Below are positions 43,548 to 60,546 of a stretch of DNA of 64,000 nt, piece after piece (positions within the stretch are counted from its first letter, which is position 1; the number at the start of each line of letters is the position of its first letter). A program made the translations under genes and the position numbers. The notes under the pieces are model-generated. The model made no database searches, had not been told where the DNA came from, and was given only the letters and a program-made list of their open reading frames with translations. The stretch comes from Sulfurihydrogenibium sp. YO3AOP1 (GTDB lineage: Bacteria; Aquificota; Aquificia; Aquificales; Hydrogenothermaceae). The DNA is taken from positions 889,501 to 953,500 of the forward strand of contig NC_010730.1 in NCBI RefSeq assembly GCF_000020325.1, given 5' to 3'.

Positions 43548-44156
43548 TTATATCCCAAGCTCCTGTTTAAAGGCTTCGTTTACATCGCAGTATTTTCTTG
43601 TAGCTCTAAATTCATTAATTTTATTGAAGGAAAATCTATCATCAGTATCGTCATATTGAAGCTCATAAATAGTGAATTTAACAGTATCTTTATCGGCATA
43701 CGTTTTTTCTCCTGATAAGTAGCGTTCAGCTTTAATTAAGTAGACTTTTTTACTGTTTTTTATTTTAACTAATCTAAAATCTCTTAATATACAATCAGCT
43801 CCTTCATGAGTAAATAATTGATATTCTTCTTTGTCAGGCAGTTGACCGATTGAAATTATATCCAATCTCTTGATATTTGATTTCTCTTGACTATCTATCT
43901 TCCTTGATAAATAAAAGGAAATTACAGAAAACGTATGAGCAGAGATATTGTTTCTATAACCTTTTACAATAATATCTTTTTCTCCGTCCCCATCTAAATC
44001 AAGATAATTTAGTCCATTAGAAATAACGGTTGACCAAGTTATACTTTGCTTTAAAGTTTCTATCTTTTCTTTCTCCTCACTAAACCCATGCTTTGGCAAG
44101 ATAAACAATATAAAAACTAATAAAATCCGGAAAATTTTGAGTCTTCTCATATGCAC
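43548..44156 (-). CDS. Exported protein, possibly CarG-like
   Basis: The 202-residue protein has a signal peptide (about residues 1-26, ending HGFS) and then LDLDGDGEKDIIVKGYRNN, GADCILRDFRLVK and YCDVNEAFKQELG. The Asp-rich DxDGDG loop should bind calcium. The combination resembles the carbapenem self-resistance CarG-like family, as far as I recall it, but the functional label should not be transferred. It stands alone, next to another secreted unknown. Confidence 0.6.
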   Translation of the reverse strand: MHMRRLKIFRILLVFILFILPKHGFSEEKEKIETLKQSITWSTVISNGLNYLDLDGDGEKDIIVKGYRNNISAHTFSVISFYLSRKIDSQEKSNIKRLDIISIGQLPDKEEYQLFTHEGADCILRDFRLVKIKNSKKVYLIKAERYLSGEKTYADKDTVKFTIYELQYDDTDDRFSFNKINEFRATRKYCDVNEAFKQELGI

Positions 44157-44352
44157 TCCTCCTTTTTGAAAAATTTTAATTAAAATTAAATATTAGAGCA
44201 ATCATTTTTGACTTTAATACAGATACGTCTTTTATTTGCTATGATATTTTGTAAATAATTCTTTTTCCCTGCTCGGAAAATAGTAGTATAGATAATCATA
44301 ATTTTTTTATTTTCTGCATAAATCAAAACTTAAATTACTTACACCTCTTTTT

Positions 44353-44859
44353 TCAGTATTCTATGTGTTTTTCATCTATTTCTATTGAATTTTCTAGCAC
44401 TCCTATATTATATTTTTTCCCATTCATATCATAGACTTCAAAATATTCACACTCTGGACAATTTCCTCCACGATAATAGTCGAACATTACAAACCATTTA
44501 CCAGTAGGACTTTTGTAACAAGTTATATGTGTTATAACGTAAGGCAATATTCTTTCCCCTTTTATTAACTTCCTTGTTTTTGGATCTATATTTAATAGAA
44601 GAAATCTTTCACTTTTAATTTTAGGCGAGGTAGAATTTATTTTCTTTTTCCCTATAATGATATATTGATTATCAGCTACACAAAAAGGCGGTAAAGCTTC
44701 ACGATAAATACAGTGTGTAATTACCTTAACATCAACCCCTCCACAACTAAAATCTGTTTGAACTGTATAGTTTTGCTTAATATCCTCACTCCAACTTTGC
44801 CCCTGCAAAACAATTAATATAAAAATTGGTATTACCCAAGACTTTCTAAACCATCTCAT
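44353..44859 (-). CDS. Exported protein of unknown function, cysteine-containing
   Basis: From ATG 44859 (168 residues; the frame runs to 44886) there is a signal peptide (MRWFRKSWVIPIFILIVLQG, cleaved near QSWS) and a mature part with six cysteines, including CGG, CIYR, and a CPEC pair in RGGNCPECEYFEVY. No family recognised. GGGGGTAAAAC lies before the ATG. It is followed 196 nt later by the other secreted unknown. Confidence 0.55.
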   Translation of the reverse strand: MRWFRKSWVIPIFILIVLQGQSWSEDIKQNYTVQTDFSCGGVDVKVITHCIYREALPPFCVADNQYIIIGKKKINSTSPKIKSERFLLLNIDPKTRKLIKGERILPYVITHITCYKSPTGKWFVMFDYYRGGNCPECEYFEVYDMNGKKYNIGVLENSIEIDEKHIEY

Positions 44860-44921
44860 ATTAAGTTTTACCCCCAATATAAACACTTTTTTATCTATGA
44901 GATATTATACTTTAAGTCTTC

Positions 44922-47048
44922 TCACCTAATCAAAGTGTAAATCACAAAGCTAACAATCCAAGCAGATGTAAAGTTTATCAAAATAGATATAAACATCCAT
45001 CTATAACTGTTTAGTTCTTGTTTTATTGCAAAAACTGTTGCAAGACATGGAGTGTATAAAAGCAAGAAAGCTAAAAAAGAGTAAGCTTGAGCAGGTGTAA
45101 AACTTTCTTTCAATACAGAGCCAAGACCTTTAAACTCATCCTCTTCTTTTTCTGTTTTTACAAGCCCAAAAGTAGAAGCCAAATCTTTAAAAAGACTTAC
45201 ATTAGCATCTATAAAGCCGCTAAAAATCTCATTTAACCCTTCTTGAAAGGATAAACTTTTCTTTTCTTCCTTCAGCTCTTCTCCAACATAAATATTACTC
45301 ATTGTTGATAGTACTACTTCCTTAGCTACAAAACCAGAAAATAATGAAGCTGTCGCTTGCCAAGTTCCAAATCCAATAGGCTCAAAAATTACCGATACTT
45401 TTTGAGAAACCTGAGCAAGTAAAGACTCATCTTTTTTAGCTCCAAAAGGAATGTTTGTTAAAAACCAAACTATGATTGAGGTTGCAAAAATAAACGTTCC
45501 AGCTTCAACAATAAAAGATTTTACACGTACCCAAGCATTGTTTAGAATGTATTTAAGCGTTGGCATTCTGTAAGGTGGTAGCTCTAAAATGAAAACTTCA
45601 GACTTTGTTTTAAAATAAAACTTATTAAGCAGTGTCGCTACAATTACAGCAACTAAAATCCCAATCAGATAAAGAGAGAATATAACTAAACCTTTTTGAT
45701 TTTCAAAGAAAACGCTTACAAAAAATGCAAAAACTGTTAATCTTGCTCCACAAGACATAAAAGGAATCATTAAAGCTGTAAGGATTTTTTCTTTTTGGCT
45801 TTCAATCGTCCTTGTTGCATAAACAGCAGGAACGTTACAACCAAAACCAAGAAGCAGTGGAATAAAAGATTTTCCGCTCAATCCAAAGCTACTCATAAAC
45901 CTATCCATCAAAAACGCTGCACGGGATATATACCCACTTCCTTCTAAAAAAGAAATGACTATATACAGCACAAAAAGCACCGGAACAAAAGTAATAACAA
46001 ATCCAACTCCACCTATTACAGCATCTGCCACAAAAGATTTAATAAACTCCGACGCATTTAAAGACTCTAAAATCTGTAAAGCCCAGATACCAATCACTTC
46101 CAAAACTTTGTTTAGAAAATCAACGTAAGGAGAAGAAAATTTAAAGGTAATCTCAAAAGAAAGCCAAACCAAAAATAAAAATATTGGAATGCCAAAGTAT
46201 TTATGTAAAAAGATTTTATCTAAAAATAATGAACCTTCTACTGTATTAACCGGCTCTTTTTTTACAGTTTGCTCGTAGATGCCTAACACTATCCCGTATC
46301 TTTCTTCAATAATCAAAGTCTTAACGTCTTTTCCATAGATGCTTTTAATTTTTTCTCTTAATTTTTCTAACTCTTGCGCAAGTGCATCGGAAAGATTATC
46401 TTTTAGACTTCCTTCTAAAAGAGATACTGCTAAATAGCGTTTAGGATACAAGTTCAAAAGAACAGGTTGATAAATCTCTACAAGTTTTAAAACTTCTTTT
46501 AAATACTTCTCAAATTCTACTTCAAAATGCTCACATTGGACAAACTTTTTATTTTCATATACTTGTATGATTTTATCTAAAATCTCATCAATTCCAAGCC
46601 TTTTTTTAGCTGATGCAGGAATTACAGGACTGCATAAAAGATTTTCAAGCTTTTTAAAGTCAACAGATATTCCTTTTTCTACCGCCTCATCCCATATATT
46701 TAATACTACTAAGATCGGAATCTCAAACTCTAATAACTGAGTTGTTAGATATAAATTTCTTTTTAGATTTGTAGAGTCTAAGATATTTAAAATCACATCC
46801 GGTTTTTCATTTAATAGATAATCAACCGTTATTTTTTCTTCTGCTGTTTGATTTCTTAGGCTGTAAATACCCGGTAAGTCAACAAATCTGATGATATAAT
46901 CTTTATAAGTAATAGTTGCTTCTTTTTTTTCTATCGTAACGCCCGGCCAGTTGCCAACTTTTAAATCAGTTCCGGCAATTTCATTAAGTAGAGCGGTTTT
47001 TCCAACGTTTGGGTTTCCTATTAAAGCAACTTTTATTTCTTTTAACAT
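44922..47048 (-). CDS. feoB: Ferrous iron transporter B
   Basis: FeoB imports Fe(II). The 708 residues hold the N-terminal G domain (GNPNVGKTALLNEIAG, VDLPGIYSL, LNIWD in place of the usual NMxD) and a helical membrane part with two Gate repeats and TPCLATVFAIKQE near the end. It overlaps feoA by 7 nt. The short CCCCCT-type FeoC is not seen. Confidence 0.95.
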   Translation of the reverse strand: MLKEIKVALIGNPNVGKTALLNEIAGTDLKVGNWPGVTIEKKEATITYKDYIIRFVDLPGIYSLRNQTAEEKITVDYLLNEKPDVILNILDSTNLKRNLYLTTQLLEFEIPILVVLNIWDEAVEKGISVDFKKLENLLCSPVIPASAKKRLGIDEILDKIIQVYENKKFVQCEHFEVEFEKYLKEVLKLVEIYQPVLLNLYPKRYLAVSLLEGSLKDNLSDALAQELEKLREKIKSIYGKDVKTLIIEERYGIVLGIYEQTVKKEPVNTVEGSLFLDKIFLHKYFGIPIFLFLVWLSFEITFKFSSPYVDFLNKVLEVIGIWALQILESLNASEFIKSFVADAVIGGVGFVITFVPVLFVLYIVISFLEGSGYISRAAFLMDRFMSSFGLSGKSFIPLLLGFGCNVPAVYATRTIESQKEKILTALMIPFMSCGARLTVFAFFVSVFFENQKGLVIFSLYLIGILVAVIVATLLNKFYFKTKSEVFILELPPYRMPTLKYILNNAWVRVKSFIVEAGTFIFATSIIVWFLTNIPFGAKKDESLLAQVSQKVSVIFEPIGFGTWQATASLFSGFVAKEVVLSTMSNIYVGEELKEEKKSLSFQEGLNEIFSGFIDANVSLFKDLASTFGLVKTEKEEDEFKGLGSVLKESFTPAQAYSFLAFLLLYTPCLATVFAIKQELNSYRWMFISILINFTSAWIVSFVIYTLIR

Positions 47049-47272
47049 TTTTCTTCCACCAAGATTTTATAAGCTTCTGTTCTTCGTAGTGCAAGACAAT
47101 AATCATGAAGTTTTATTTTTATAGGTCCACCAAAAGGTGCTACTTGTATAAGTTCTAATTCCGTTCCGGGTAGTATGCCAAGTTCAAAAAGTTTTAGCTT
47201 CAAAGCCTCATCCATATCCACATCTTTCACAACAGCCTTACAACCTTCCTTTATATCTAATAGTCTTTTCAT
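47042..47272 (-). CDS. feoA: Ferrous iron transport protein A
   Basis: A 76-residue SH3-like protein with KLFELGILPGTELELIQ and ALRRTEAYKILVE, normal for FeoA, which supports FeoB. A Fur-box-like palindrome (47286-47304) lies 14 nt before its start, so feoAB is probably iron-controlled. Confidence 0.93.
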   Translation of the reverse strand: MKRLLDIKEGCKAVVKDVDMDEALKLKLFELGILPGTELELIQVAPFGGPIKIKLHDYCLALRRTEAYKILVEEKC

Positions 47273-47285
47273 CTTCTTCCTTTAA

Positions 47286-47304
47286 ATTAAGATTTAATCT
47301 CAAT
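47286..47304 (-). promoter_or_regulatory. Fur-box-like palindrome upstream of feoA
   Basis: ATTAAGATTTAATCTCAAT differs at one position from the perfect palindrome found at 54385. Read as 7-1-7 (TAAGATT-T-AATCTCA), it keeps most bases of the classical Fur half-site TGATAAT..ATTATCA. It lies 14 nt before feoA, in the place where a repressor would act. Confidence 0.7.
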
Positions 47305-47324
47305 AATATTTATTATATGCTAAA

Positions 47325-48038
47325 TCAAAAGAATCTGTATGTCAAACCGCCATAGAAAGAATAATCATTTTCTCCAGTAAAGTTTTTACCTATTCCAATA
47401 CCTATCTCTATTTTACCCTTAGAATATCCTACACCAATCAATCCACCTTTTTCTGTTTGGCTACTGTAATTAGAAAGATAAAAGCTTGTTATTACACTGA
47501 AATTATCGTTAATGTTATACTCCCCGGAAACAGACTGAAAAATTTCATTTTGTCCAACTATTCTATTTTTATGAACCATGAAAGATGAGTTTGCATAAAA
47601 AGTAAATTTATCAACTTCTAACTGAGAAATCAAAGTAATTCCATAGCTTAAATGACGTTCGCTAAAATCGCTATCTCTCTTTACAGGTATTCCAAGAAAT
47701 GGCTTTATAGCAAACTTTAAATTTTCTCTCTCAAAAAATCTATACTTTACTTCAACAAAAGGGTCTGATATATCTGAGTAAGTGTTTTCATAATTTTTTA
47801 AGTATCCAAAAGGAATGTTTAAAGCTATGTCTGTTTTATCGTTATATCCATACGTAAAGTTAAAAATATAACTGCCTTCTCTATCTTCTGTGTTTTTTGT
47901 GTAAAAAAAGTAATTTTCATTTTGAGAATTTCCTGTTCCAAGCGTTTCTGTATCATCCCATATAAGAGCCTTTTTACCAGCAAATGCAAAGCTTGGGATA
48001 ATCAATAATGATAGTGAATAAATTAAATACTTCTTCAT
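47325..48038 (-). CDS. Predicted outer-membrane beta-barrel protein
   Basis: The 237-residue protein has a signal peptide (MKKYLIYSLSLLIIPSFAFA) and alternating amphipathic strands, ending in GGLTYRFF, a C-terminal Phe typical of barrels inserted by BamA. FNFTYGYNDKTDIALNIPFGYLK and GLIGVGYSKGKIEIGIGIG are strand pairs. It may be a small porin or receptor. Its start overlaps the upstream 60-residue gene by 4 nt, and feoA lies 52 nt downstream, so it sits in the iron cluster. Confidence 0.7.
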   Translation of the reverse strand: MKKYLIYSLSLLIIPSFAFAGKKALIWDDTETLGTGNSQNENYFFYTKNTEDREGSYIFNFTYGYNDKTDIALNIPFGYLKNYENTYSDISDPFVEVKYRFFERENLKFAIKPFLGIPVKRDSDFSERHLSYGITLISQLEVDKFTFYANSSFMVHKNRIVGQNEIFQSVSGEYNINDNFSVITSFYLSNYSSQTEKGGLIGVGYSKGKIEIGIGIGKNFTGENDYSFYGGLTYRFF

Positions 48039-48217
48039 TTACGAAAACCTCCTCTTTGTATAGTTTCTGAAGTTTGCATATTTTGTAAAGTCGTCAGTAT
48101 CTTATAATAAGATTCAAAGATCTCAATTTTTCTTTCTTTGGAGTCTAAGGAAGCAATAACTTTTGAATAAACTTTTGCCAACTCTTCTACTCTTTCAATC
48201 AATTCTTTTGAATGCAT
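48035..48217 (-). CDS. Small helical protein, paralogue 1 (60 residues)
   Basis: From ATG 48217 the protein begins MHSKELIERVEELAKVYSKV and is charged and fully helical in appearance, with a YYKILTTLQ stretch. GGAGG lies 8 nt upstream; the frame extends to 48346 but through the operator region, so I reject that. A near-identical copy lies at 54166-54345. A Fur-box-like site is 27 nt upstream. No known family. Confidence 0.75.
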   Translation of the reverse strand: MHSKELIERVEELAKVYSKVIASLDSKERKIEIFESYYKILTTLQNMQTSETIQRGGFRK

Positions 48218-48243
48218 TGCCAAACCTCCAAAAATTATTAGAA

Positions 48244-48262
48244 ATTGAGATTTATTCTCAAT
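48244..48262 (-). promoter_or_regulatory. Fur-box-like palindrome upstream of small paralogue 1
   Basis: ATTGAGATTTATTCTCAAT differs at one base from the perfect 54385 copy. It lies in the divergent spacer shared by the small gene (left) and the porin (right). A shorter TGATTTTAATCA (48283-48294) palindrome lies between it and the next copy. Confidence 0.7.
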
Positions 48263-48328
48263 TAAAATTTTAAAAGAGAAAATGATTTTAATCACAAATA
48301 TTTTATGATTTAAAGGTGAATTAGTCAT

Positions 48329-48347
48329 ATTGAAATTCAATCTCAAA
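48329..48347 (+). promoter_or_regulatory. Fur-box-like palindrome upstream of the porin
   Basis: ATTGAAATTCAATCTCAAA matches the 54385 palindrome at 16 of 19 positions. It lies 41 nt before the porin ATG, so the divergent spacer has one site for each direction. Confidence 0.6.
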
Positions 48348-48388
48348 TTTTAAAATAATTTACGAAAAAATTTTAGGAGGTAATCATT

Positions 48389-49744
48389 ATGAGGAAAACA
48401 TTATTATCTATGGCTTTATTATCTTCTGTAGCGTTAGCTCATGCTTCGGAAGATAAAATTAAAATACTTGAAGACCAGATAAAACTTCTTCAAGAAGAAG
48501 TACAAAAACTAAAACAAGAACAAGCTTCCGTTAAAGAAGTAAAAGAGGAGAATGAATCTATAAAAGAAGAGCTTAGAAAGTTAAAAATAGAGATAGCTAT
48601 GCCAGAGCTTGAAGTTAAATCTTACTATGGAATGGGTCCCGCTGCATCTAAGGCGATGTTTAATCAGAAAGGTGTATCTATTGGTGGATACGGAGAAATC
48701 CACTTTGTTCATAACCCGGATAAAAAACCAAAAAACACCATAGATGCCAAAAGACTAATCCTCTACTTTGGTTATGCCTTCAATGAAAAGCTAAAATTCA
48801 ACTCAGAGATTGAATGGGAGCATGCATTCGTAGAAGGAAAAGAGGAAAGCGGAGAGACTGCAGTAGAGTTTGCTTTTATAGATTACAACTTTAGTCAAAA
48901 GTTAGGATTAAGAGGAGGATTACTTCTTATACCTGTAGGTATTGTTAATGAATATCATGAACCACCTACTTTCCCAAGCGTTGATAGGCCATATCTTGAA
49001 AGAAACATAATTCCTTCCACATGGCGTGAACTTGGTTTTGGTGCATATGGAAAACTGGGAAATTTAGAGTATAAAGCCTACATAACAAATGGACTAAAAC
49101 CTAACGAGGAAGCAGGTGAGAAAGTGGAAAAAGGGGAAATTCTAAAAGGATTTAGACAAAATGGTTTTAAGGCGGCTTCTGACCAGATAGCTTTTACTGG
49201 TAGGCTTGACTATAATTTGCCGATTAATTTAAAAGTAGGTATTAGTGGTTTCTTTGGAGGCGTACAGGATGATGAGGGGAATAAATTAGGTAGTATTAAT
49301 CTTTTATTTCCCCACCTTTGGTGGCAGTACAGGGGATGGGATCTTAGATTGGTAGGAGCATACGGAACTACTTCTGGAGCAGATAAGATATCCCAGGGGA
49401 TAAGCACAAACCCTGTATGTCAACTTGGCGATACCACCCAGTGTACCACATTTCCTAAAAAGTTTTACGGATTTTATACACAGGTAGCATACGATGTGTT
49501 AAAGTTTTTCAAAGTATCTGACCAGCAACTAAATTTATTTGGCATCTATGAAAACTACGATACCCATGCCAGCGTCCCAGAGGGCTTTGAAAAACCAGAA
49601 GGACATAAAGTGGAAGTATATAATATAGGACTCTCATACAAGCCGCATCCTTTAGTAGCATTAAAAGCTGATTATGTTCGCTTTTCACCGCATGATGCAA
49701 AAAAACAAAATCTTTATAGATTTGCTATCGGATGGATGTTTTAG
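48389..49744 (+). CDS. Porin with N-terminal coiled coil
   Basis: The 451-residue protein has a signal peptide (MRKTLLSMALLSSVALAHA), a coiled coil at about 22-70 (IKILEDQIKLLQEEVQKL), then a barrel (IGGYGEIHFV, GLRGGLLLIPVGIVNEYHEPP) ending in FAIGWMF with the C-terminal Phe. This is the layout of trimeric porins. The 3' half is much richer in G+C than the 5' half (52% in 49321-49380 by count, against 27% in 48541-48600), suggesting a mosaic. Its stop lies within the ribosome binding site of the next gene. Confidence 0.85.
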   Translation: MRKTLLSMALLSSVALAHASEDKIKILEDQIKLLQEEVQKLKQEQASVKEVKEENESIKEELRKLKIEIAMPELEVKSYYGMGPAASKAMFNQKGVSIGGYGEIHFVHNPDKKPKNTIDAKRLILYFGYAFNEKLKFNSEIEWEHAFVEGKEESGETAVEFAFIDYNFSQKLGLRGGLLLIPVGIVNEYHEPPTFPSVDRPYLERNIIPSTWRELGFGAYGKLGNLEYKAYITNGLKPNEEAGEKVEKGEILKGFRQNGFKAASDQIAFTGRLDYNLPINLKVGISGFFGGVQDDEGNKLGSINLLFPHLWWQYRGWDLRLVGAYGTTSGADKISQGISTNPVCQLGDTTQCTTFPKKFYGFYTQVAYDVLKFFKVSDQQLNLFGIYENYDTHASVPEGFEKPEGHKVEVYNIGLSYKPHPLVALKADYVRFSPHDAKKQNLYRFAIGWMF

Positions 49745-49754
49745 GAGGGTGAAT

Positions 49755-51414
49755 ATGAGAAGACTTGTGCTATTATCCGTGATATTCCTTTATTCATGTG
49801 GTGGAGGGGGGAGGAGTAAAAGAAAAAAAAGGAGAAAGCTTTGTTAACCCTGAGCCTAACATACCCCTTGAATGCTATACTGACACAGGCATCGTGAGAT
49901 ACGGAAAGGCGATAGCAAACCCTTGTTACGTATGCCACACGCAAGCCAACACCCCTTATGCCAACGAAAAATCAGATATGAATCTAACCCTTAACTACTC
50001 TTTTCCTGAGAAGATACTAAAGATAGGAAATCCTTGGCTCAACGCAATAAGACCAGACTTGACCTTGGTAGGTGTAGATGCTCCTTCTGACGCAGAGGTG
50101 CAAAGTTATATAAGGCAAGATAACTGGAGTTTTGCTTACAGGAATAGAGGTAGCGGAGACCTTAAATACTTTCCTGACGTGCCACCACTGTACTCATACA
50201 CAGGTGGAGGGTATAACTTGGCAAATATTGATATGGAGGGTTTTGTATTAGACCCTGAAACTGGAAAATACACTGGTTGGAGGGTTTTTAAGTGGAAACC
50301 CTTCCCAGGTTTTTTCCCTACAAACGGTAGAATCGACTCAACCTTAATAAGACTTGACAGACCCTTCAGAGAAAGTAGAGGAATATTCAACAAGGAGGTT
50401 TACAAGAAAAACTTAGCCATAGCGGAGTGTGCAGTAAAAGGAGTAAAGCCCGGTGAAGTTTGCAGAGGCACAGAAGTAGGAGACTTTACAATGCCAGAAC
50501 ACTATGAAGGGGATGCAAGTGGTGTACCGGTGATAACATACCAGTATCCACCGGGCACTGAATTTGCCCATCCTCTCTATTACTTGGACCCCTCAAACAC
50601 AATATCTTACAAATCTCTCCGTATAAAGGAAATGCGGTATATGAAAAAGTTGGCTTATATAGGTGTCCAAAAAGGTGGTGAAGAGGAAGAGGAAGAGAAA
50701 AGTTTTTTTTGGGACAAAGGGCTTGTGTTTAATGATAGTAAGAACTGGATAATGGCAGGGTTTATAGAAGATAAGGATGGAAGGTTGAGACCTCAAAGTG
50801 CTCAGGAGATGAAGTTTTGTGTAGCATGTCATGGGGGCATAGGGGGAACTGTTGATGCCACCTTTACATATTGGCGAAAAGTTCCCGGTGCAGATGGTTG
50901 GATGGAACAAGATTATAATTTAACCATTAAAAACATAAAAGATTGGAACTATGAAAGTTTTGAAGGAAATCTTGGTACCGAACTTGCTAAAATTGAAGCT
51001 TTAATAAAAGGTGAATACCAGCTGTATTTCTCCATGACTAACGGGGGAGATCACTTTAGAAGCAACGAAGAGATACGCTCAAGGATAAGTAAAGATGTTA
51101 ACAAGATATCGTTTATACTTTCGCCGCAGGACAACATTATCACAAACCCAAGCCTTATAAACTATCTGGATAATGAAGACTACATAAAACCTGAACTTTT
51201 TCTTCCTTCGCCTGAACGCGCATACAGTATAGATAAACAGTACATAAGAATAGTAAAAGCTCAAGGGTTCATCTTTGGAAGAGATGTTTTTGATAGACCT
51301 TTTGGTATATCTTCAGGAGGTAATTCCCTTGAAAAACTCTCTAACTTAGATAGTACAGGCGTAAAAGAGTCCGGATTATGGGCTATTATAAAAACCCTAC
51401 TTCATTTAAAGTAA
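49755..51414 (+). CDS. Diheme c-type lipoprotein, frame disrupted at a homopolymer
   Basis: A strong ribosome binding site (AGGAGGGTG) precedes ATG 49755, which opens a lipoprotein signal (MRRLVLLSVIFLYSCGGGG, lipobox LYSC) but stops at 49847. The main 530-residue body continues in another frame, from about 49798 to 51414. Shifting one base in G6 (49806-49811) or A8 (49823-49830) joins them. The body has two CxxCH haem motifs, PCYVCH and FCVACHGG, about 300 residues apart. By eye it is G+C-richer than its surroundings. It may be an exported diheme electron carrier, off in this phase or mis-sequenced. Confidence 0.75.
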
Positions 51415-51464
51415 TATACGAGTTAAATTTTATAACTTCTTCATCTCAGACCTCCTATTATTTA

Positions 51465-51491
51465 GCCGGTAGTTTATGCTGCCGGTTTTTT
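51465..51491 (+). terminator. Terminator after the diheme lipoprotein
   Basis: CCGGTAG and CTGCCGG pair (one G-U) around a 6-nt loop, followed by GTTTTTT. It closes the porin-lipoprotein unit; the FMN-binding gene begins 80 nt later. Confidence 0.8.
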
Positions 51492-51571
51492 ATATGATAT
51501 GATAAAATTCATTGGGACTAAATCCCGGTTTTGAGACTATATTTATAAAATTCTCAATTGTGGAGGTGTTT

Positions 51572-52102
51572 ATGTTTAAATATGCTATATACACTCTAAT
51601 CCTTATATTTACTTTTTCTTATGCTAATGAATCTAAAAAGCCAGAAGATGTTTTAAAAAGGATTTATCTAGGCTCTAATGTTGAAATAAAAAATTTAGTT
51701 CTAAATTCTCAACAGTTAGAATCAATTCAAAAACTTTCAGGAGTTAAATTTGATTCTAAGTTAGTCTCTATATATATTGTAAAGAAAGGACAAAATATAG
51801 TAGCTTATGGCTATGTAGATACACATGTAGTAAGAACAAAGCCGGAGGTTGTTTTATACACAATAACTCCTGATTTTAAAATTGATGTTATAGAAGTATT
51901 ACATTTTGGAGAACCCTTGGAATATCTTCCAGAGAAAAACTGGTTTGAAAATTTTAAGGGAAAAGGTTTAGATAATGATGGTCTTAAATTAAGGGCTAAT
52001 ATTCCTAATGTTTCCGGTGCAACTTTAACTTCAAGGGCAATCACGGACAGAGCAAGGCTTGCGGTTGCAATCATAAAAACCTTGTTTGGTGAAAAAAAAT
52101 GA
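51572..52102 (+). CDS. Exported FMN-binding domain protein
   Basis: From ATG 51572 (GGAGGT upstream; the frame runs back to 51512 without a ribosome site) there are 176 residues: a signal peptide (1-18) and an FMN_bind domain ending in NVSGATLTSRAITDRA. Thr151 in the SGAT motif should carry FMN linked by phosphoester, as in NqrC/RnfG. ApbE, which makes that link, is encoded 0.9 kb away. It overlaps the next gene by 4 nt. Confidence 0.85.
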   Translation: MFKYAIYTLILIFTFSYANESKKPEDVLKRIYLGSNVEIKNLVLNSQQLESIQKLSGVKFDSKLVSIYIVKKGQNIVAYGYVDTHVVRTKPEVVLYTITPDFKIDVIEVLHFGEPLEYLPEKNWFENFKGKGLDNDGLKLRANIPNVSGATLTSRAITDRARLAVAIIKTLFGEKK

Positions 52103-53037
52103 GATTTTTGATTACAAACGATATTAAGCTTAAAAAAAACATTTTTTATATAGTGCTATTCTTTAATATATTTTCTTTCCTGTTTATTATAGCTTCCATC
52201 TTCCAGTACAACATTACGTATGGATTTAGCTATGAAAGTTTGTATAAATACTTTTTTACAGACCCAGAATTTCCAGAAAAGGTCTCTGTAAAACAAGTAG
52301 TTGAAAATGTACATATCAATCTATTTTTAAATATGTTTCTCTTTATAATAGTATCCTCAATTTTTAATGTATTTAACTTTACTCTAAGATTAAAAATGTT
52401 TCTTATCATTGCTTTCTTTATAAGCAGTGTTTTGTATTCTTTTTCTGATCTGATAGTGTATTATTTTGACAGCTTCTTGTATATTAAACCATTATCATTT
52501 TTAACATTTATTGCTTTAGCATTTATAATGCTTATCCTCTCAACCTTTTACTTATTAAAAAAAAACATAAAACCATCCATAAAAGCAATTAAATTTATAA
52601 TTATATTTTTTAGCTTTTTTACTTTAGTATTTATTGTTTTTAACTTTTTTATCTTTTACATCAAATTCGGACTTACATCAGAAAGCATAAAAGACTACTA
52701 CTTAGGAAATCCAGAAAGATATACAAAGCCAAAAACCTCAGAAGGACTGTTTAAAATCTTTTATCCCCACTTGCTGAGTATGGCGTTGTATTCTTTTACT
52801 GTTGCCCATTTATTACTTTTTACAGAATTAAAGAAAGTTATTAGTCTAACAATAGGTTTAATCTTATTTGTATCAAGCTTTTTAGATAATCTTTCTGGTC
52901 TGTTTATAAGATTTTTTAATGAATCCTTTGTTTATTTAAAAATGATCTTTTTTATAATCTTCGAGCTATTTTCTCTTTTTGCCATAATTTATATTATCTT
53001 GGATATAATTATATCATTTAAAACGGAAAAAACTTAA
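52099..53037 (+). CDS. Multi-pass membrane protein of unknown function
   Basis: A 312-residue protein with about eight membrane helices and few charges in them. His residues occur in NVHINLFLNMF and in PHLLSMALYSFTVAHLLLF, 13 residues apart. Such spacing could bind a haem b, but this is inference. It is coupled to the FMN-binding gene (ATGA) and its 3' end overlaps the convergent apbE by 20 nt. It may pass electrons to the flavoprotein. No family recognised. Confidence 0.7.
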   Translation: MRFLITNDIKLKKNIFYIVLFFNIFSFLFIIASIFQYNITYGFSYESLYKYFFTDPEFPEKVSVKQVVENVHINLFLNMFLFIIVSSIFNVFNFTLRLKMFLIIAFFISSVLYSFSDLIVYYFDSFLYIKPLSFLTFIALAFIMLILSTFYLLKKNIKPSIKAIKFIIIFFSFFTLVFIVFNFFIFYIKFGLTSESIKDYYLGNPERYTKPKTSEGLFKIFYPHLLSMALYSFTVAHLLLFTELKKVISLTIGLILFVSSFLDNLSGLFIRFFNESFVYLKMIFFIIFELFSLFAIIYIILDIIISFKTEKT

Positions 53038-53899
53038 TTTCTTCAAAGAAATCTAAGAAATTTTTATTAAACTCTATATTGCCATTTTCAAACATTAATA
53101 AATATCCAAACTTTGCATTTTTTAAGAATTTTTCTCTTTTGTTTTTATCCATTGCAAAGATTGCAGTTGATAAAGCATCAGTAAATGTGCATTCGTTATA
53201 CACTACGCTAACTTGTAATAAGTCTGTTTTTTGTCCAATTATATGTTTTTGAAAATAGTTTCCTGACGTAGATACACATATATCTTTTTTTGCAATCCCT
53301 TCTGTTAATATTTTTTTTGTAATAGGATTGAAAATTCCTATATTTCTCTCATGACCCCATGATTTTAAATCTCCGGCAATTGCTATAAAACCTTTATCCT
53401 TTTTAATAAATTCGTATGCTTTTTGTATAGCATAACCCTTTCCAATCCCACCCAAGTCTATAGCCATTCCTTTCTTTTTCAAGAAGACAGTCATATTTTT
53501 CTCGTCTAATACAATATCTTTATAATTTACAAGTTTTTTTGCTTGTTTAAGGTCTATTTCCTTGTCTCTTTTATATCTAATTGTTATAGCACCAACGGTT
53601 ATATCAAAAGCTCCATCTGTAAGCTCTGATATCTCTACTGATTTTTTAATTACCTCAAAAGTTTCCGGACTAACTTTAACGGGTTTTATTCCTGCAAATT
53701 TATTTATTGCAGAAATTTCAGAGTCTTTTATATAATCAGACAATTTGTCTTCTAAATTTTTTAAAAATCTGTAAACTTCATATTCTAATTCTCCATCTAT
53801 CTCTACTATTGCATAAGTACCCATAAGGTTAAAAACTTTTTCTTCACAATAAACTTTTGAACTTAGGAATAATGTTAAAATTACAATTAAATAAACCAT
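53018..53899 (-). CDS. apbE: FAD:protein FMN transferase
   Basis: ApbE moves FMN from FAD onto a Thr of exported flavoproteins. The 293 residues have a signal peptide (1-18), FNLMGTYAIVEI, DGAFDITVG, the FAD-binding AIDLGGIGKGYA, and the metal-binding ECTFTDALSTAIFAM. It lies tail-to-tail with the membrane gene whose partner, an FMN-binding protein, is the obvious substrate. Confidence 0.93.
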   Translation of the reverse strand: MVYLIVILTLFLSSKVYCEEKVFNLMGTYAIVEIDGELEYEVYRFLKNLEDKLSDYIKDSEISAINKFAGIKPVKVSPETFEVIKKSVEISELTDGAFDITVGAITIRYKRDKEIDLKQAKKLVNYKDIVLDEKNMTVFLKKKGMAIDLGGIGKGYAIQKAYEFIKKDKGFIAIAGDLKSWGHERNIGIFNPITKKILTEGIAKKDICVSTSGNYFQKHIIGQKTDLLQVSVVYNECTFTDALSTAIFAMDKNKREKFLKNAKFGYLLMFENGNIEFNKNFLDFFEEIKFFPF

Positions 53900-53978
53900 G
53901 TTTACACCTACTTATAAACTTAGTTTTAAGTATGTAATAAGATATCATTTGTTAGAAGTTAGAAATTTAAAAAACTTA

Positions 53979-54041
53979 AAGAGGGAATTCTCGGACTAAT
54001 GTCCTTATGATGAAAAAATAGCAGGCAAAGAATCTCATAAT
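53979..54041. repeat. Worn dispersed hairpin repeat unit
   Basis: GAGGGAATTCTCGGACTAATGTCC...ATGATGA and a fragment of the other arm (GCAAAGAATCTCAT) lie upstream of apbE. They are more worn than elsewhere. Confidence 0.6.
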
Positions 54042-54165
54042 TAATCTTTCGAATTTCTCTTCCAACATATTTAAAATACTTCCGATTTAATTTCTTCGGT
54101 ATTTTGATACTTTTAAACAAAGAAAAAAGCTGATATTTTTTCAATCAACTTACATTGAATAATTT

Positions 54166-54345
54166 TCAATCATAAAAACTTTTTTCAAGAGTTTCTGAAC
54201 TCTGTATATCTTGCAAAGTTCTCAGTATCTTATAATAAGATTCAAACATCTCAATTTTCCTTTCTTTGGAGTCTAATGAAACAATAACTTTTGAATAAAC
54301 TTTCGCCAGCTCTTCTACTCTTTCAATTAATTCTTTTGAGTACAT
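54166..54345 (-). CDS. Small helical protein, paralogue 2 (59 residues)
   Basis: From ATG 54345 (AGGAAG upstream) the protein starts MYSKELIERVEELAKVYSKV. It is nearly the same as paralogue 1 over the first 52 residues, differing at about seven positions, mostly conservative; only the last residues diverge. A perfect Fur-box-like palindrome lies 39 nt before the start. It should be transcribed alone. Function unknown. Confidence 0.75.
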   Translation of the reverse strand: MYSKELIERVEELAKVYSKVIVSLDSKERKIEMFESYYKILRTLQDIQSSETLEKSFYD

Positions 54346-54384
54346 TTTAACTCTTCCTATTTTAAAGTTTCTAATATTGTAGCA

Positions 54385-54403
54385 ATTGAGATTTAATCTC
54401 AAT
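54385..54403 (-). promoter_or_regulatory. Perfect Fur-box-like palindrome upstream of small paralogue 2
   Basis: ATTGAGATTTAATCTCAAT is a perfect 9-1-9 palindrome. Three near copies lie upstream of feoA, paralogue 1 and the porin. In the 7-1-7 reading, TGAGATT-T-AATCTCA agrees with the classical Fur box at the outer TGA/TCA and central AT-rich positions. Confidence 0.75.
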
Positions 54404-58119: not shown

Positions 58120-58527
58120 ATGAGAAAGAAAGTAGGAGCATCTACCTACATTCAGAGAATTAATACACTTGAAAGAAAGCTTTTAAAACAAGTAAAAGAA
58201 TTAGATGATGTTATGGAAAAACATCCAGAAATAATCTTTAGATTGCAAGTAGTAGAATTTGCTTTAAAACATTCAGTGAAGGTTGCAGTTGAAGCTTTTG
58301 GTGTATCAAAATCTACCATATACAGATGGATTAAAGAGTATGAAAGCAGTAATAACAATCCTGTATCTCTTAAAAATCGTTATATATCAAAAAAAGGAAT
58401 GAAATTAGAAAAATTACAAAAAATAACAGAAAAACATAAACAATTAGTTTTAGAAATAAGAAAGAAACATCCTAAGCTTGGGAAAGAAAAAATAAAGGTT
58501 TTACTTGATAAACTCTGTAAGCAGCAC
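58120..58527 (+). pseudogene. IS481-like transposase, 5' part
   Basis: 136 codons from ATG 58120 (GGGGGATAAAG upstream) encode a helix-turn-helix part (VAVEAFGVSKSTIYRWIKEY) and HPKLGKEKIKVLL. After CKQH (58527) the frame enters the inserted IS. If bases 58528-59830 are removed, the frame continues directly into NIPTISASSIG at 59831, so it is one gene split by insertion. Confidence 0.85.
58520..58527. repeat. 8-bp target site duplication, left copy
   Basis: AGCAGCAC at 58520-58527 is repeated exactly at 59823-59830, just outside the IS256-family ends. The family usually makes 8-9 bp duplications. Confidence 0.85.
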
Positions 58528-59822
58528 GAGACTTATCAATAATTTTGTGTCTGGATTGAAAACTTTTTATTAAACAATTGTAAAATTTCATAAGAAGCTC
58601 CTTTAAAAGCAGGTATAGGTTTTTTCCATTTTCCATTCTTTAAATTATCTCTCTGTATAAGCAGATTTATCTCAAGAATGTCTACAGATTGAAAATATCC
58701 GCCTAAATTTATTCTTACTTTCTCTATCATGCTATTAACACTTTCAACTGGATTTGTTGTGTATATGTGCTTTCTTAGATTTTCTGGATATTTTAAAAAA
58801 CATAAGTATCTCTCTTTGTTAGATTGAATATGTTTTATAAAGCTTGGATATTTAGATTTAAATCTACTACATAAATCATCTAATTTTTCTAATCCATCTT
58901 CATAATCTAAGCTGTTTTCTTTTATGTTTTTTAATTCTTTGTTAAATACTTGTGAATCTTCTTTATCCATCTGATTTCTAACGTTTCTTTGTAAATGGAC
59001 TAAACATAGCTGATGGTCTGTATAAGGAAATAGTGTTTCTATGGCTTTTGTTATCCCAGGAAAATCATCACTTACTATAAGCATTACCCTTTTTAGTCCT
59101 CTATCTATTAAATCATTGAATACTTTTATCCAGTCTGCTTTGTTTTCACTACTGAAAAATGTGTAAAATCCAAATATATCTTTATTTCCTTGTAAATCTA
59201 TTCCAAGAACTACATAGACAGAAGCCTTTCTGATTTTGTTTTTCTCTTTTATATCACAGTGATATGCGTCTATATACAGTACAAATGCATCCGATGGAAG
59301 CTCTCTTGTTTTAAAATCATTAAGTCTTTCTATAAGCTCTTTTTTGATTTTATCCATATGTTGTTTTGAATAGTTTAAGCCTAAGCTTTTTAATGTAGAA
59401 TCTATCTTGCTTTCTGAGTATCCATTGGATACCAAACTCATAAGAAGGTCTATATAATCTTCATCAACTCTTTTGTAAGGGTCAGGTAATATTTGTGGTC
59501 TAAATTTACCCTTTCTATCTCTTGGGACATTTATGTTAAGCTTGAAAGAACCAGTATTTAGGTTTCTTTCGTAGTATCCATTTGCTTTGTTATCTTCATC
59601 ATTTTCAAGGAAGAAATTTCTTTCCTGATTCATGACCAGTTCTACAACAGATTCTAAAAGCTTTCTTATACCTATCTTTTCTTTGGTTGTTATACCGTTT
59701 GGGAAAAATTCTTTTACTAATTCCTCTGTGGATCTGTTTAATACTTTTTCAAAGTATTCTTTTTTATCCATTATCATTCCTCCTTATAAATTTAATTTAG
59801 ACACAACATTATTTTAACTCCC
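58528..59822 (-). mobile_element. IS256-family insertion sequence, complete
   Basis: The 1295-bp element holds one transposase gene. The ends GAGACTTATCAATAATTTTG... and, inverted, GGGAGTTAAAATAATGTTG... share a TAATnTTGTGTCT block with one-base offset. Direct 8-bp repeats flank it. The intact gene and clean duplication suggest a recent insertion. Confidence 0.85.
58536..59771 (-). CDS. IS256-family transposase
   Basis: The protein (411 residues from ATG 59771, with AAGGAGG 7 nt before it) is a DDE transposase of the Mutator/IS256 type: NVPRDRKGKFRPQILP, YIDAYHCDIKE (first Asp), LIVSDDFPGITKAIETLFP (second Asp), HQLCLVHLQRNVRNQM, and IYTTNPVESVNSMIEKVR with the catalytic Glu. It appears whole. 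Confidence 0.95.
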   Translation of the reverse strand: MDKKEYFEKVLNRSTEELVKEFFPNGITTKEKIGIRKLLESVVELVMNQERNFFLENDEDNKANGYYERNLNTGSFKLNINVPRDRKGKFRPQILPDPYKRVDEDYIDLLMSLVSNGYSESKIDSTLKSLGLNYSKQHMDKIKKELIERLNDFKTRELPSDAFVLYIDAYHCDIKEKNKIRKASVYVVLGIDLQGNKDIFGFYTFFSSENKADWIKVFNDLIDRGLKRVMLIVSDDFPGITKAIETLFPYTDHQLCLVHLQRNVRNQMDKEDSQVFNKELKNIKENSLDYEDGLEKLDDLCSRFKSKYPSFIKHIQSNKERYLCFLKYPENLRKHIYTTNPVESVNSMIEKVRINLGGYFQSVDILEINLLIQRDNLKNGKWKKPIPAFKGASYEILQLFNKKFSIQTQNY

Positions 59823-59830
59823 AGCAGCAC
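59823..59830. repeat. 8-bp target site duplication, right copy
   Basis: AGCAGCAC, identical to the left copy at 58520-58527. Confidence 0.85.
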
Positions 59831-60546
59831 AATATTCCTACGATATCTGCAAGTTCAATTGGAAATATAATAAAAATGCTTAAAGAGGAAAGGAAGTTAA
59901 ATCATGAGTACGCCAGGCAAAGAATCTCAATCAACGGAAGAACTGGAAAGCTAATAGTGAAAGAAGATAAAAAGAAAACAAAGAAAGATAGATATAAAGA
60001 CAAAAAACCAACAAAACCAGGAGAATTGGTACAAATAGATACAAAGCATGAATATGTAAATGGTAGAAAAGTTTATATATTTGTAGCCAAGGATGTAAAA
60101 ACAAGAATCTCTTTTACTTTTGCATATGACAGGCTAAACAGTAAAAACGCAAAGGACTTTTTAGAGAAATTAATAAAAGCAATACCATTTGAGATAAAAG
60201 GTATACAAACAGATAATGGCAGTGAATTCTTGGGTGAGTTTAGCAAGGCATTAAAGAAAAAAGATATAAAACATTATTTTAACTATCCAAGATATCCAAA
60301 AGGACAAGCATATGTAGAGAGAATGAATAGGACATTACAGGATGAATTTATCATGTACTACGAAGATTATGAATTAAAAGATGTTTATGAGTTTAATAAA
60401 AAATGATGGAGTATATGCTATGGTATAACATAGAAAGACCTCATCATAGTTTAAACAAAAAATCACCTATTGCATACTTTTGTGATATTATAAATTCAAG
60501 AAAATCGGAATTTTCCCAAACTGGTATGACCTATACAACAATTTGA
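59831..60546 (+). pseudogene. IS481-like transposase, 3' part with frameshift
   Basis: The frame resumes at 59831 (NIPTISASSIGNIIK) and holds the DDE core: LVQIDTKHEY, IQTDNGSEFLGEF and KGQAYVERMNRTLQDEF. It stops at 60406 because an A6 tract (60398-60403) lacks or gains a base; in the next frame it continues MMEYMLWYNIERPHHSLNKK to 60546. So the gene has both an insertion and a frameshift. Confidence 0.85.

What the first reader, a model, noticed from the sequence alone, without database searches (positions are those of the whole stretch)
44922..54403. Candidate iron-responsive envelope electron-transfer module
Within 9.5 kb lie feoAB, a beta-barrel, a coiled-coil porin, a diheme c-type lipoprotein, an exported FMN protein with the SGAT flavin site, a multi-pass protein with spaced His residues, ApbE to load the flavin, and two copies of one small unknown protein. 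Fur-like palindromes precede four of the genes. Known: FeoAB imports Fe(II), ApbE flavinylates FMN_bind proteins. Inferred: the set moves electrons across the envelope to reduce iron, or takes up iron, under iron control. I know of no described system with this gene set.
Basis: partly seen in the sequence, partly recalled or inferred. Interest (0 to 1): 0.8.

Follow-up and report, generated by a model that had tools for sequence, protein, structure and literature searches.

The report
Iron-controlled flavin electron-transfer gene module
These hot-spring bacteria (order Aquificales) carry a conserved gene set, probably switched on when iron is scarce, that pairs a flavin-carrying exported protein with an unclassified membrane protein and most likely reduces iron outside the cell so it can be imported; in this strain an extra cytochrome gene was spliced in from a distant relative and is now out of frame with its export signal.

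Summary
The gene list is real, but it is two things joined. (1) The conserved core in Aquificales is porin – FMN_bind protein – 8-helix membrane protein (TM), with ApbE and, in Hydrogenothermaceae, a ~60-aa protein. FMN and TM are adjacent in nearly every genome that keeps TM. This genome has one FMN_bind protein and one ApbE; across 112 genomes ApbE tracks TM (64 both, 37 neither, 11 discordant). TM matches no Pfam family, PDB sequence or PDB fold; it is an internal 4+4-helix duplication, encoded as two genes in other genera. (2) The diheme protein is an optional, horizontally acquired insert: a 3-kb stretch (porin barrel plus cytochrome) is 84% identical in DNA to another family, while the flanks are 95–96% identical to S. 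yellowstonense, which lacks it. Here its lipoprotein signal is out of frame with the cytochrome domain. The palindrome TGAGATTNAATCTCA precedes four transcription units and recurs before feoA, the porin/FMN operon and the small protein in relatives, so shared iron (Fur) control is likely. feoAB itself is usually far away. Most likely function: flavin-mediated Fe(III) reduction in the periplasm, feeding FeoAB. It resembles known flavinylation/iron systems but uses an unclassified membrane component.

The parts
44922..47048 (-). feoB, Fe(II) transporter
   Evidence: TIGR00437 617.8 bits; adjacent to the module only in this Sulfurihydrogenibium lineage and near it in two other genomes
47042..47272 (-). 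feoA
   Evidence: PF04023 E 5.8e-22
47288..47302 (.). palindrome TAAGATTTAATCTCA 15 bp before the feoA start; candidate Fur box
   Evidence: 1 mismatch; a site at the same place before feoA in many relatives: 11 of 20 feo loci with <=2 mismatches against 0.07 expected
47325..48038 (-). 237-aa exported beta-barrel-like protein, feo-associated
   Evidence: no Pfam family; in another Sulfurihydrogenibium genome that lacks the TM module (L086/L107) the order is site-small-barrel-feoA-feoB
48035..48220 (-). small ~60-aa protein without signal peptide, copy 1
   Evidence: family found in 20 of 112 genomes, all Hydrogenothermaceae, 17 of them with TM
48246..48260 (.). palindrome TGAGATTTATTCTCA before small protein 1
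   Evidence: 1 mismatch; also in SS-5 (L009)
48331..48345 (.). palindrome TGAAATTCAATCTCA before the porin
   Evidence: 1 mismatch; a best site of 1-3 mismatches 14-55 bp before the porin start in most relatives
48389..49744 (+). coiled-coil porin; mosaic gene: N-terminal ~80 aa native, the rest foreign
   Evidence: conserved order porin-FMN-TM; identity switches from SS-5-like to G027-like at about alignment column 80
48435..51413 (+). horizontally acquired ~3-kb tract (porin barrel + diheme gene); the left breakpoint lies somewhere in 48435-48825
   Evidence: 84.4% DNA identity to G027 (Aquificaceae); flanks 95-96% identical to S. yellowstonense, which lacks the cytochrome; GC 0.38-0.40 against 0.24-0.34 in neighbouring genes
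49755..51414 (+). diheme c-type lipoprotein gene, frameshifted between lipobox and mature domain (mature frame from 49798)
   Evidence: CYVCH and CVACH-type motifs conserved in 10 relatives
51464..51487 (+). terminator-like hairpin and T run after the diheme gene
   Evidence: terminator count in the region is not above shuffles
51572..52102 (+). exported FMN_bind protein, RnfG-like; flavin site (S/T)GAT
   Evidence: PF04205 E 6e-6; G149 and T151 invariant in 26 relatives; PDB RnfG chain 9eri_G E 1.8e-9; only FMN_bind protein found in the genome
52099..53037 (+). 8-helix membrane protein (TM), 4+4 internal duplication; invariant H72, H224, H237
   Evidence: no Pfam, PDB sequence or PDB fold match; split into two genes in other genera
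53018..53899 (-). ApbE, FAD:protein FMN transferase (only copy found in the genome)
   Evidence: PF02424 E 2.8e-48; single copy
54166..54345 (-). small ~60-aa protein, copy 2; next to ApbE here and in several relatives
54387..54401 (.). perfect palindrome TGAGATTTAATCTCA before small protein 2 (-ApbE)
   Evidence: 0 mismatches

Best explanation
This is an iron-repressed (Fur-box) envelope redox module. Under iron limitation the cell makes a porin, a periplasmic protein that ApbE loads with covalent FMN, and its co-translated 8-helix inner-membrane partner. The membrane partner passes electrons from the quinone pool or cytosol, probably through haem b or another metal bound by its conserved histidines, to the FMN protein. 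The FMN protein reduces Fe(III) or ferric chelates that enter through the porin, and FeoAB imports the Fe(II). Shown here: gene content, synteny, single-copy ApbE and FMN_bind, shared palindrome, TM duplication, cytochrome insert. Inferred: Fur as the binder, electron direction, haem in TM, Fe(III) as the acceptor. In this strain the porin barrel and a partner diheme cytochrome were imported together from an Aquificaceae relative; the cytochrome is now probably not exported or not functional unless the frame is bypassed.
For: Order porin-FMN-TM in most of ~40 fetched genomes, FMN and TM usually overlapping by 4 bp. One FMN_bind gene per genome in nearly all, next to TM. ApbE/TM co-occurrence 64/4/7/37, Fisher p 5e-18, phylogeny not corrected. 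The same palindrome precedes feoA in genomes where feo is far from the module, G098 and G102; it also precedes porin/FMN operons order-wide and small-protein genes. A canonical Fur is encoded, among 3 FUR-family proteins. Published flavinylation clusters with iron transporters, some Fur-repressed (PMC8238504).
Against: No iron-response data. feoAB is not physically linked in most genomes. In Aquificaceae the site is mostly not found close to feoB. The haem assignment in TM rests only on three invariant histidines; H72 and H224 are pseudo-symmetric, but H237 has no partner in the N-half. About 39% of Aquificales genomes lack TM, so the module is not essential to iron uptake.
Confidence: 0.58

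Rival explanations
1. Iron-sparing electron transfer: under iron limitation the flavinylated protein and TM replace haem or Fe-S carriers in respiration; iron is the signal, not the substrate.
For: Iron-type operator plus a flavin carrier; flavin/cytochrome interchange is described in PMC8238504; feoAB is usually unlinked.
Against: The porin is co-conserved in the operon, and a diheme protein sits in the operon in some genomes, which does not fit iron sparing.
Confidence: 0.2
2. Extracellular electron transfer, or dissimilatory metal reduction or oxidation: the porin plus diheme cytochrome form an outer-membrane conduit.
For: Porin barrel and diheme gene moved as one tract; in most cytochrome-positive genomes the porin is of the matching type, 60-80% identity to the window porin against about 50% in cytochrome-negative ones; 22 of 22 genomes with a close cytochrome relative have TM.
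Against: The cytochrome is absent from most genomes with the module; only two CXXCH are present, against ten or so in known porin-cytochrome conduits (from general knowledge); it is out of frame here; L044 carries a cytochrome with a porin of the other type.
Confidence: 0.12
3. The palindrome belongs to another metal or stress regulator (Zur, PerR or another family) and the redox module serves that stress.
For: Three FUR-family proteins are encoded; the sequence differs from the E. coli Fur consensus (from memory).
Against: The most consistent target outside the module is feoA/feoB.
Confidence: 0.08

Closest known systems
Flavinylation-associated iron-reduction clusters, PepSY-like and MsrQ-like (PMC8238504; PMC11334425)
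   Same: ApbE, flavinylated extracytosolic protein, multi-helix membrane partner with conserved histidines, iron transporter association, Fur control in some cases
   Different: The membrane partner here matches none of PF03929, PF16357, PF01794, PF12801 or DsbD by hmmscan at E<=1; iron partner FeoAB rather than VIT1 or FTR1; porin in the operon
DUF4405 / FezC cytochromes (PMC11334425)
   Same: Membrane cytochromes associated with flavinylation or iron; FezC is modelled to build its haem sites by homodimerisation, as a paired 4-helix unit could
   Different: DUF4405 hits lie away from the TM loci, profile-profile E 0.4-0.7; 8 helices and three, not four, invariant histidines
RnfG / NqrC type FMN_bind proteins
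   Same: FMN_bind domain with the (S/T)GAT site; profile matches PDB RnfG chains
   Different: TIGR01947 18.3 bits against a cut-off of 102; partner is not an Rnf subunit
FeoAB ferrous iron uptake
   Same: Ordinary feoAB with an iron-type operator
   Different: Adjacent to the redox module only in a few genomes

Membership tests
ApbE-flavinylated FMN_bind system | FMN_bind domain above cut-off with [S/T]GAT acceptor motif | tested here: met
   27.3 bits against 22; motif invariant at G149, T151
ApbE-flavinylated FMN_bind system | ApbE in the genome | tested here: met
   single ApbE beside it
ApbE-flavinylated FMN_bind system | covalent FMN on the protein | not testable with these tools
   needs co-expression and in-gel fluorescence or mass spectrometry
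PepSY/MsrQ/NapH/DsbD classes of flavinylation partner | Pfam domain of the class in the membrane protein | tested here: not met
   no such match for 31 TM members at E<=1 nor for 6 split halves
DUF4405 class | PF14358 match or profile similarity | tested here: not met
   PF14358 hits lie at other loci; hhalign E 0.43 and 0.69
NQR/RNF-like | RnfG model score and Rnf/Nqr subunits nearby | tested here: not met
   TIGR01947 18.3 against 102; no unlabelled neighbour family recurs in more than 9 of 40 loci
Feo system | feoA + feoB | tested here: met
Fur regulon | shared operator with a known iron-uptake gene, conserved across species | tested here: met
Fur regulon | Fur binding and iron-dependent expression | not testable with these tools
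   needs EMSA or footprint and RNA-seq
Porin-multihaem cytochrome conduit (Mtr/Mto/Pio) | multihaem (about ten CXXCH) periplasmic cytochrome with a barrel | tested here: not met
   two CXXCH only

The most novel reading that the evidence does not exclude
The TM protein founds a new class of transmembrane electron carrier for flavinylated proteins: a 4-helix unit that works as a pair, encoded as two genes in some Hydrogenothermaceae and as one fused gene in Sulfurihydrogenibium and Aquificaceae, with a haem or metal site formed between pseudo-symmetric histidines (H72/H224) at the periplasmic side, dedicated to iron assimilation.
Probability: 0.4. Interest if true: 0.72.

Novelty: new variant of a known kind. 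Interest (0 to 1): 0.56.

Why it matters
It defines, from sequence alone, a probable iron regulon shared across an order and a dedicated flavin electron-transfer module in a thermophilic lineage with little genetics. It adds a membrane protein family, with no Pfam or PDB relative found, to the short list of partners for flavinylated proteins. It also shows such a module changing its outer-membrane part by transfer of a porin-cytochrome pair.

Tried and rejected
Feo as a fixed part of the module: rejected by gene order. Cytochrome as core: rejected (24 of 136 genomes; absent from SS-5). TM as DUF4405, PepSY or MsrQ: no support. Foldseek against PDB for TM: nothing below E 1.3; an 8-helix haem A synthase appears at rank 8 without significance and was not used. 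AlphaFold of the cytochrome: mean pLDDT 42, not used. Rfam: nothing. Promoter scan: count equals shuffles, so the overlap of -35-like hexamers with the palindromes is only suggestive. Other near-palindromes in the genome: those examined lie inside coding genes. Plasmid search for TM: none; for the cytochrome: about 32% identical relatives on large Pseudoalteromonas replicons, one of them within 1 kb of a PepSY gene, a weak lead. Literature searches for Aquificales iron regulation gave nothing specific.
Full report
WHERE. The window is G000:C1:889501-953500 of a 1.838-Mb genome. The one locus recovered by the genome-contig scan is Sulfurihydrogenibium yellowstonense SS-5 (L009), with 95-96% DNA identity in the flanks.

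WHAT IS THERE. feoB and feoA (-), a 237-aa exported barrel-like protein (-) and small protein 1 (-) run leftwards. The porin, diheme gene, FMN_bind and TM run rightwards. ApbE and small protein 2 run leftwards. The FMN_bind protein has a signal peptide by eye and the (S/T)GAT acceptor site, invariant at G149 and T151 across 26 relatives. Its profile matches RnfG chains in the PDB (9eri_G, E 1.8e-9). One FMN_bind protein and one ApbE were found in the genome, so this ApbE has no other evident FMN_bind substrate.

WHAT IS CONSERVED. In 112 genomes of the order, TM is found in 68, and in none outside the order among 136 genomes of the phylum. Among 40 loci fetched around TM, an FMN_bind gene was recovered beside TM in 39 and the porin in 28. 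ApbE presence tracks TM: 64 both, 4 TM only, 7 ApbE only, 37 neither (Fisher p 5e-18 without correction for relatedness). The small protein is a Hydrogenothermaceae family (20 genomes, 17 of them with TM) and often lies beside the module or ApbE. feoB is near-universal, but in complete genomes it lies about 100 kb or more from TM (e.g. G098 140 kb, G039 97 kb, G058 118 kb, G036 117 kb). It is close only in G000/G103 and, within about 10 kb, in G001 and G014.

THE MEMBRANE PROTEIN. No meaningful Pfam match for any of 31 members, no PDB sequence match, and no PDB fold match (best Foldseek E 1.3), although the AlphaFold model is confident (pLDDT 90.8, pTM 0.87, eight long helices plus short ones in two loops of about 23 residues). 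The two halves are homologous (hhalign E about 6e-19, probability 99%). In L071-L073 the halves are separate genes of about 158 and 149 aa that overlap each other and the FMN gene; in L074 the N-half open frame found is shorter (101 aa). Invariant residues include H72, H224 and H237. H72 and H224 occupy equivalent positions of the two halves; H237 follows H224 by 13 residues, a spacing that (from general knowledge) occurs in diheme b cytochromes. By the positive-inside rule the two large loops with the GNPE..KPKT-type motifs are periplasmic, where they could meet the FMN protein; that is inference.

REGULATION. TGAGATTNAATCTCA occurs at 47288, 48246, 48331 and 54387 with 1, 1, 1 and 0 mismatches. 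Genome-wide, at up to one mismatch of the 17-base form, the only other hit is inside a coding gene, and the eight two-mismatch sites examined are also within coding sequences. Across species, sites with at most two mismatches lie upstream of feoA/feoB in 11 of 20 loci against 0.07 expected from shuffles; ten of these eleven are Hydrogenothermaceae. Sites lie just before porin or FMN operons in most genomes, e.g. L077 perfect at 24 bp and L047, L049, L054, L056, L076 with one mismatch, and before most small-protein genes. A canonical Fur (L080) is among three FUR-family proteins. This is a footprint, not a binding test.

THE INSERTED CYTOCHROME. Window 48435-51413 aligns to G027 (another family) at 84.4% DNA identity, while FMN and TM are only about 52% and 42% identical in protein to G027. 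SS-5 lacks the gene: its porin is followed directly by FMN. The switch falls inside the porin gene (about codon 80), so signal peptide and coiled coil are native and the barrel is foreign. GC is 0.38-0.40 in the tract and 0.24-0.34 in the neighbouring genes. Porin type follows cytochrome presence in most genomes (60-80% identity to the window porin in cytochrome-positive, about 50% in cytochrome-negative genomes), with L044 an exception. The mature cytochrome frame is out of frame with the lipobox. Sequencing error, phase variation and decay cannot be told apart here.

MECHANISM AND LIKELIHOOD. Flavin-based electron transfer at the periplasm: about 0.9 likely, from established knowledge of FMN_bind/ApbE. 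Iron (Fur) control: about 0.85. Assimilatory Fe(III) reduction feeding FeoAB: about 0.58. Haem in TM: about 0.4. Published flavinylation clusters associated with iron transport and Fur (PMC8238504) and the DUF4405/FezC cytochromes (PMC11334425) are the closest described systems; TM failed the sequence tests for membership in each of those partner classes.

VERDICT. Not a wholly new system, but a new variant: a dedicated, probably iron-repressed flavin redox module with an unclassified membrane component, widespread in Aquificales, seen here next to feoAB and carrying a transferred, frame-broken cytochrome.

Noticed in passing
43548-44886; L009:202-4578: Short exported proteins in a row upstream of feoB share a very similar signal peptide (MRRLKIFWILLVFILFILP...) but mostly unrelated mature parts; SS-5 has about six in a row, the window at least two. 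The DNA leader of the 43548-44156 gene is found once in this genome apart from a 23-base match.
   Followed up: partly
L044:7620-7760: In this relative the cytochrome gene's N-terminus looks deleted (signal-like start joined to VRYGKAVANPCYVCH), and its porin is of the cytochrome-free type: a second lineage with a damaged N-terminus.
   Followed up: partly
L073:11068-12129, L071:7483-8541: In two other Hydrogenothermaceae genera an OprB-like porin gene lies next to the small protein (L073) or just before the FMN gene (L071).
   Followed up: partly
58120-60406: Transposase and integrase-like open frames lie to the right of the module; identity judged by eye, not searched.
   Followed up: no
L160:7839-12217: A 32%-identical relative of the diheme protein in Pseudoalteromonas xiamenensis lies under 1 kb from a PepSY-associated membrane protein gene.
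   Followed up: partly
L210, L215, L216, L219, L224: In another family of the same class, which lacks TM, DUF4405 cytochromes carry a C-terminal repeated domain.
   Followed up: no
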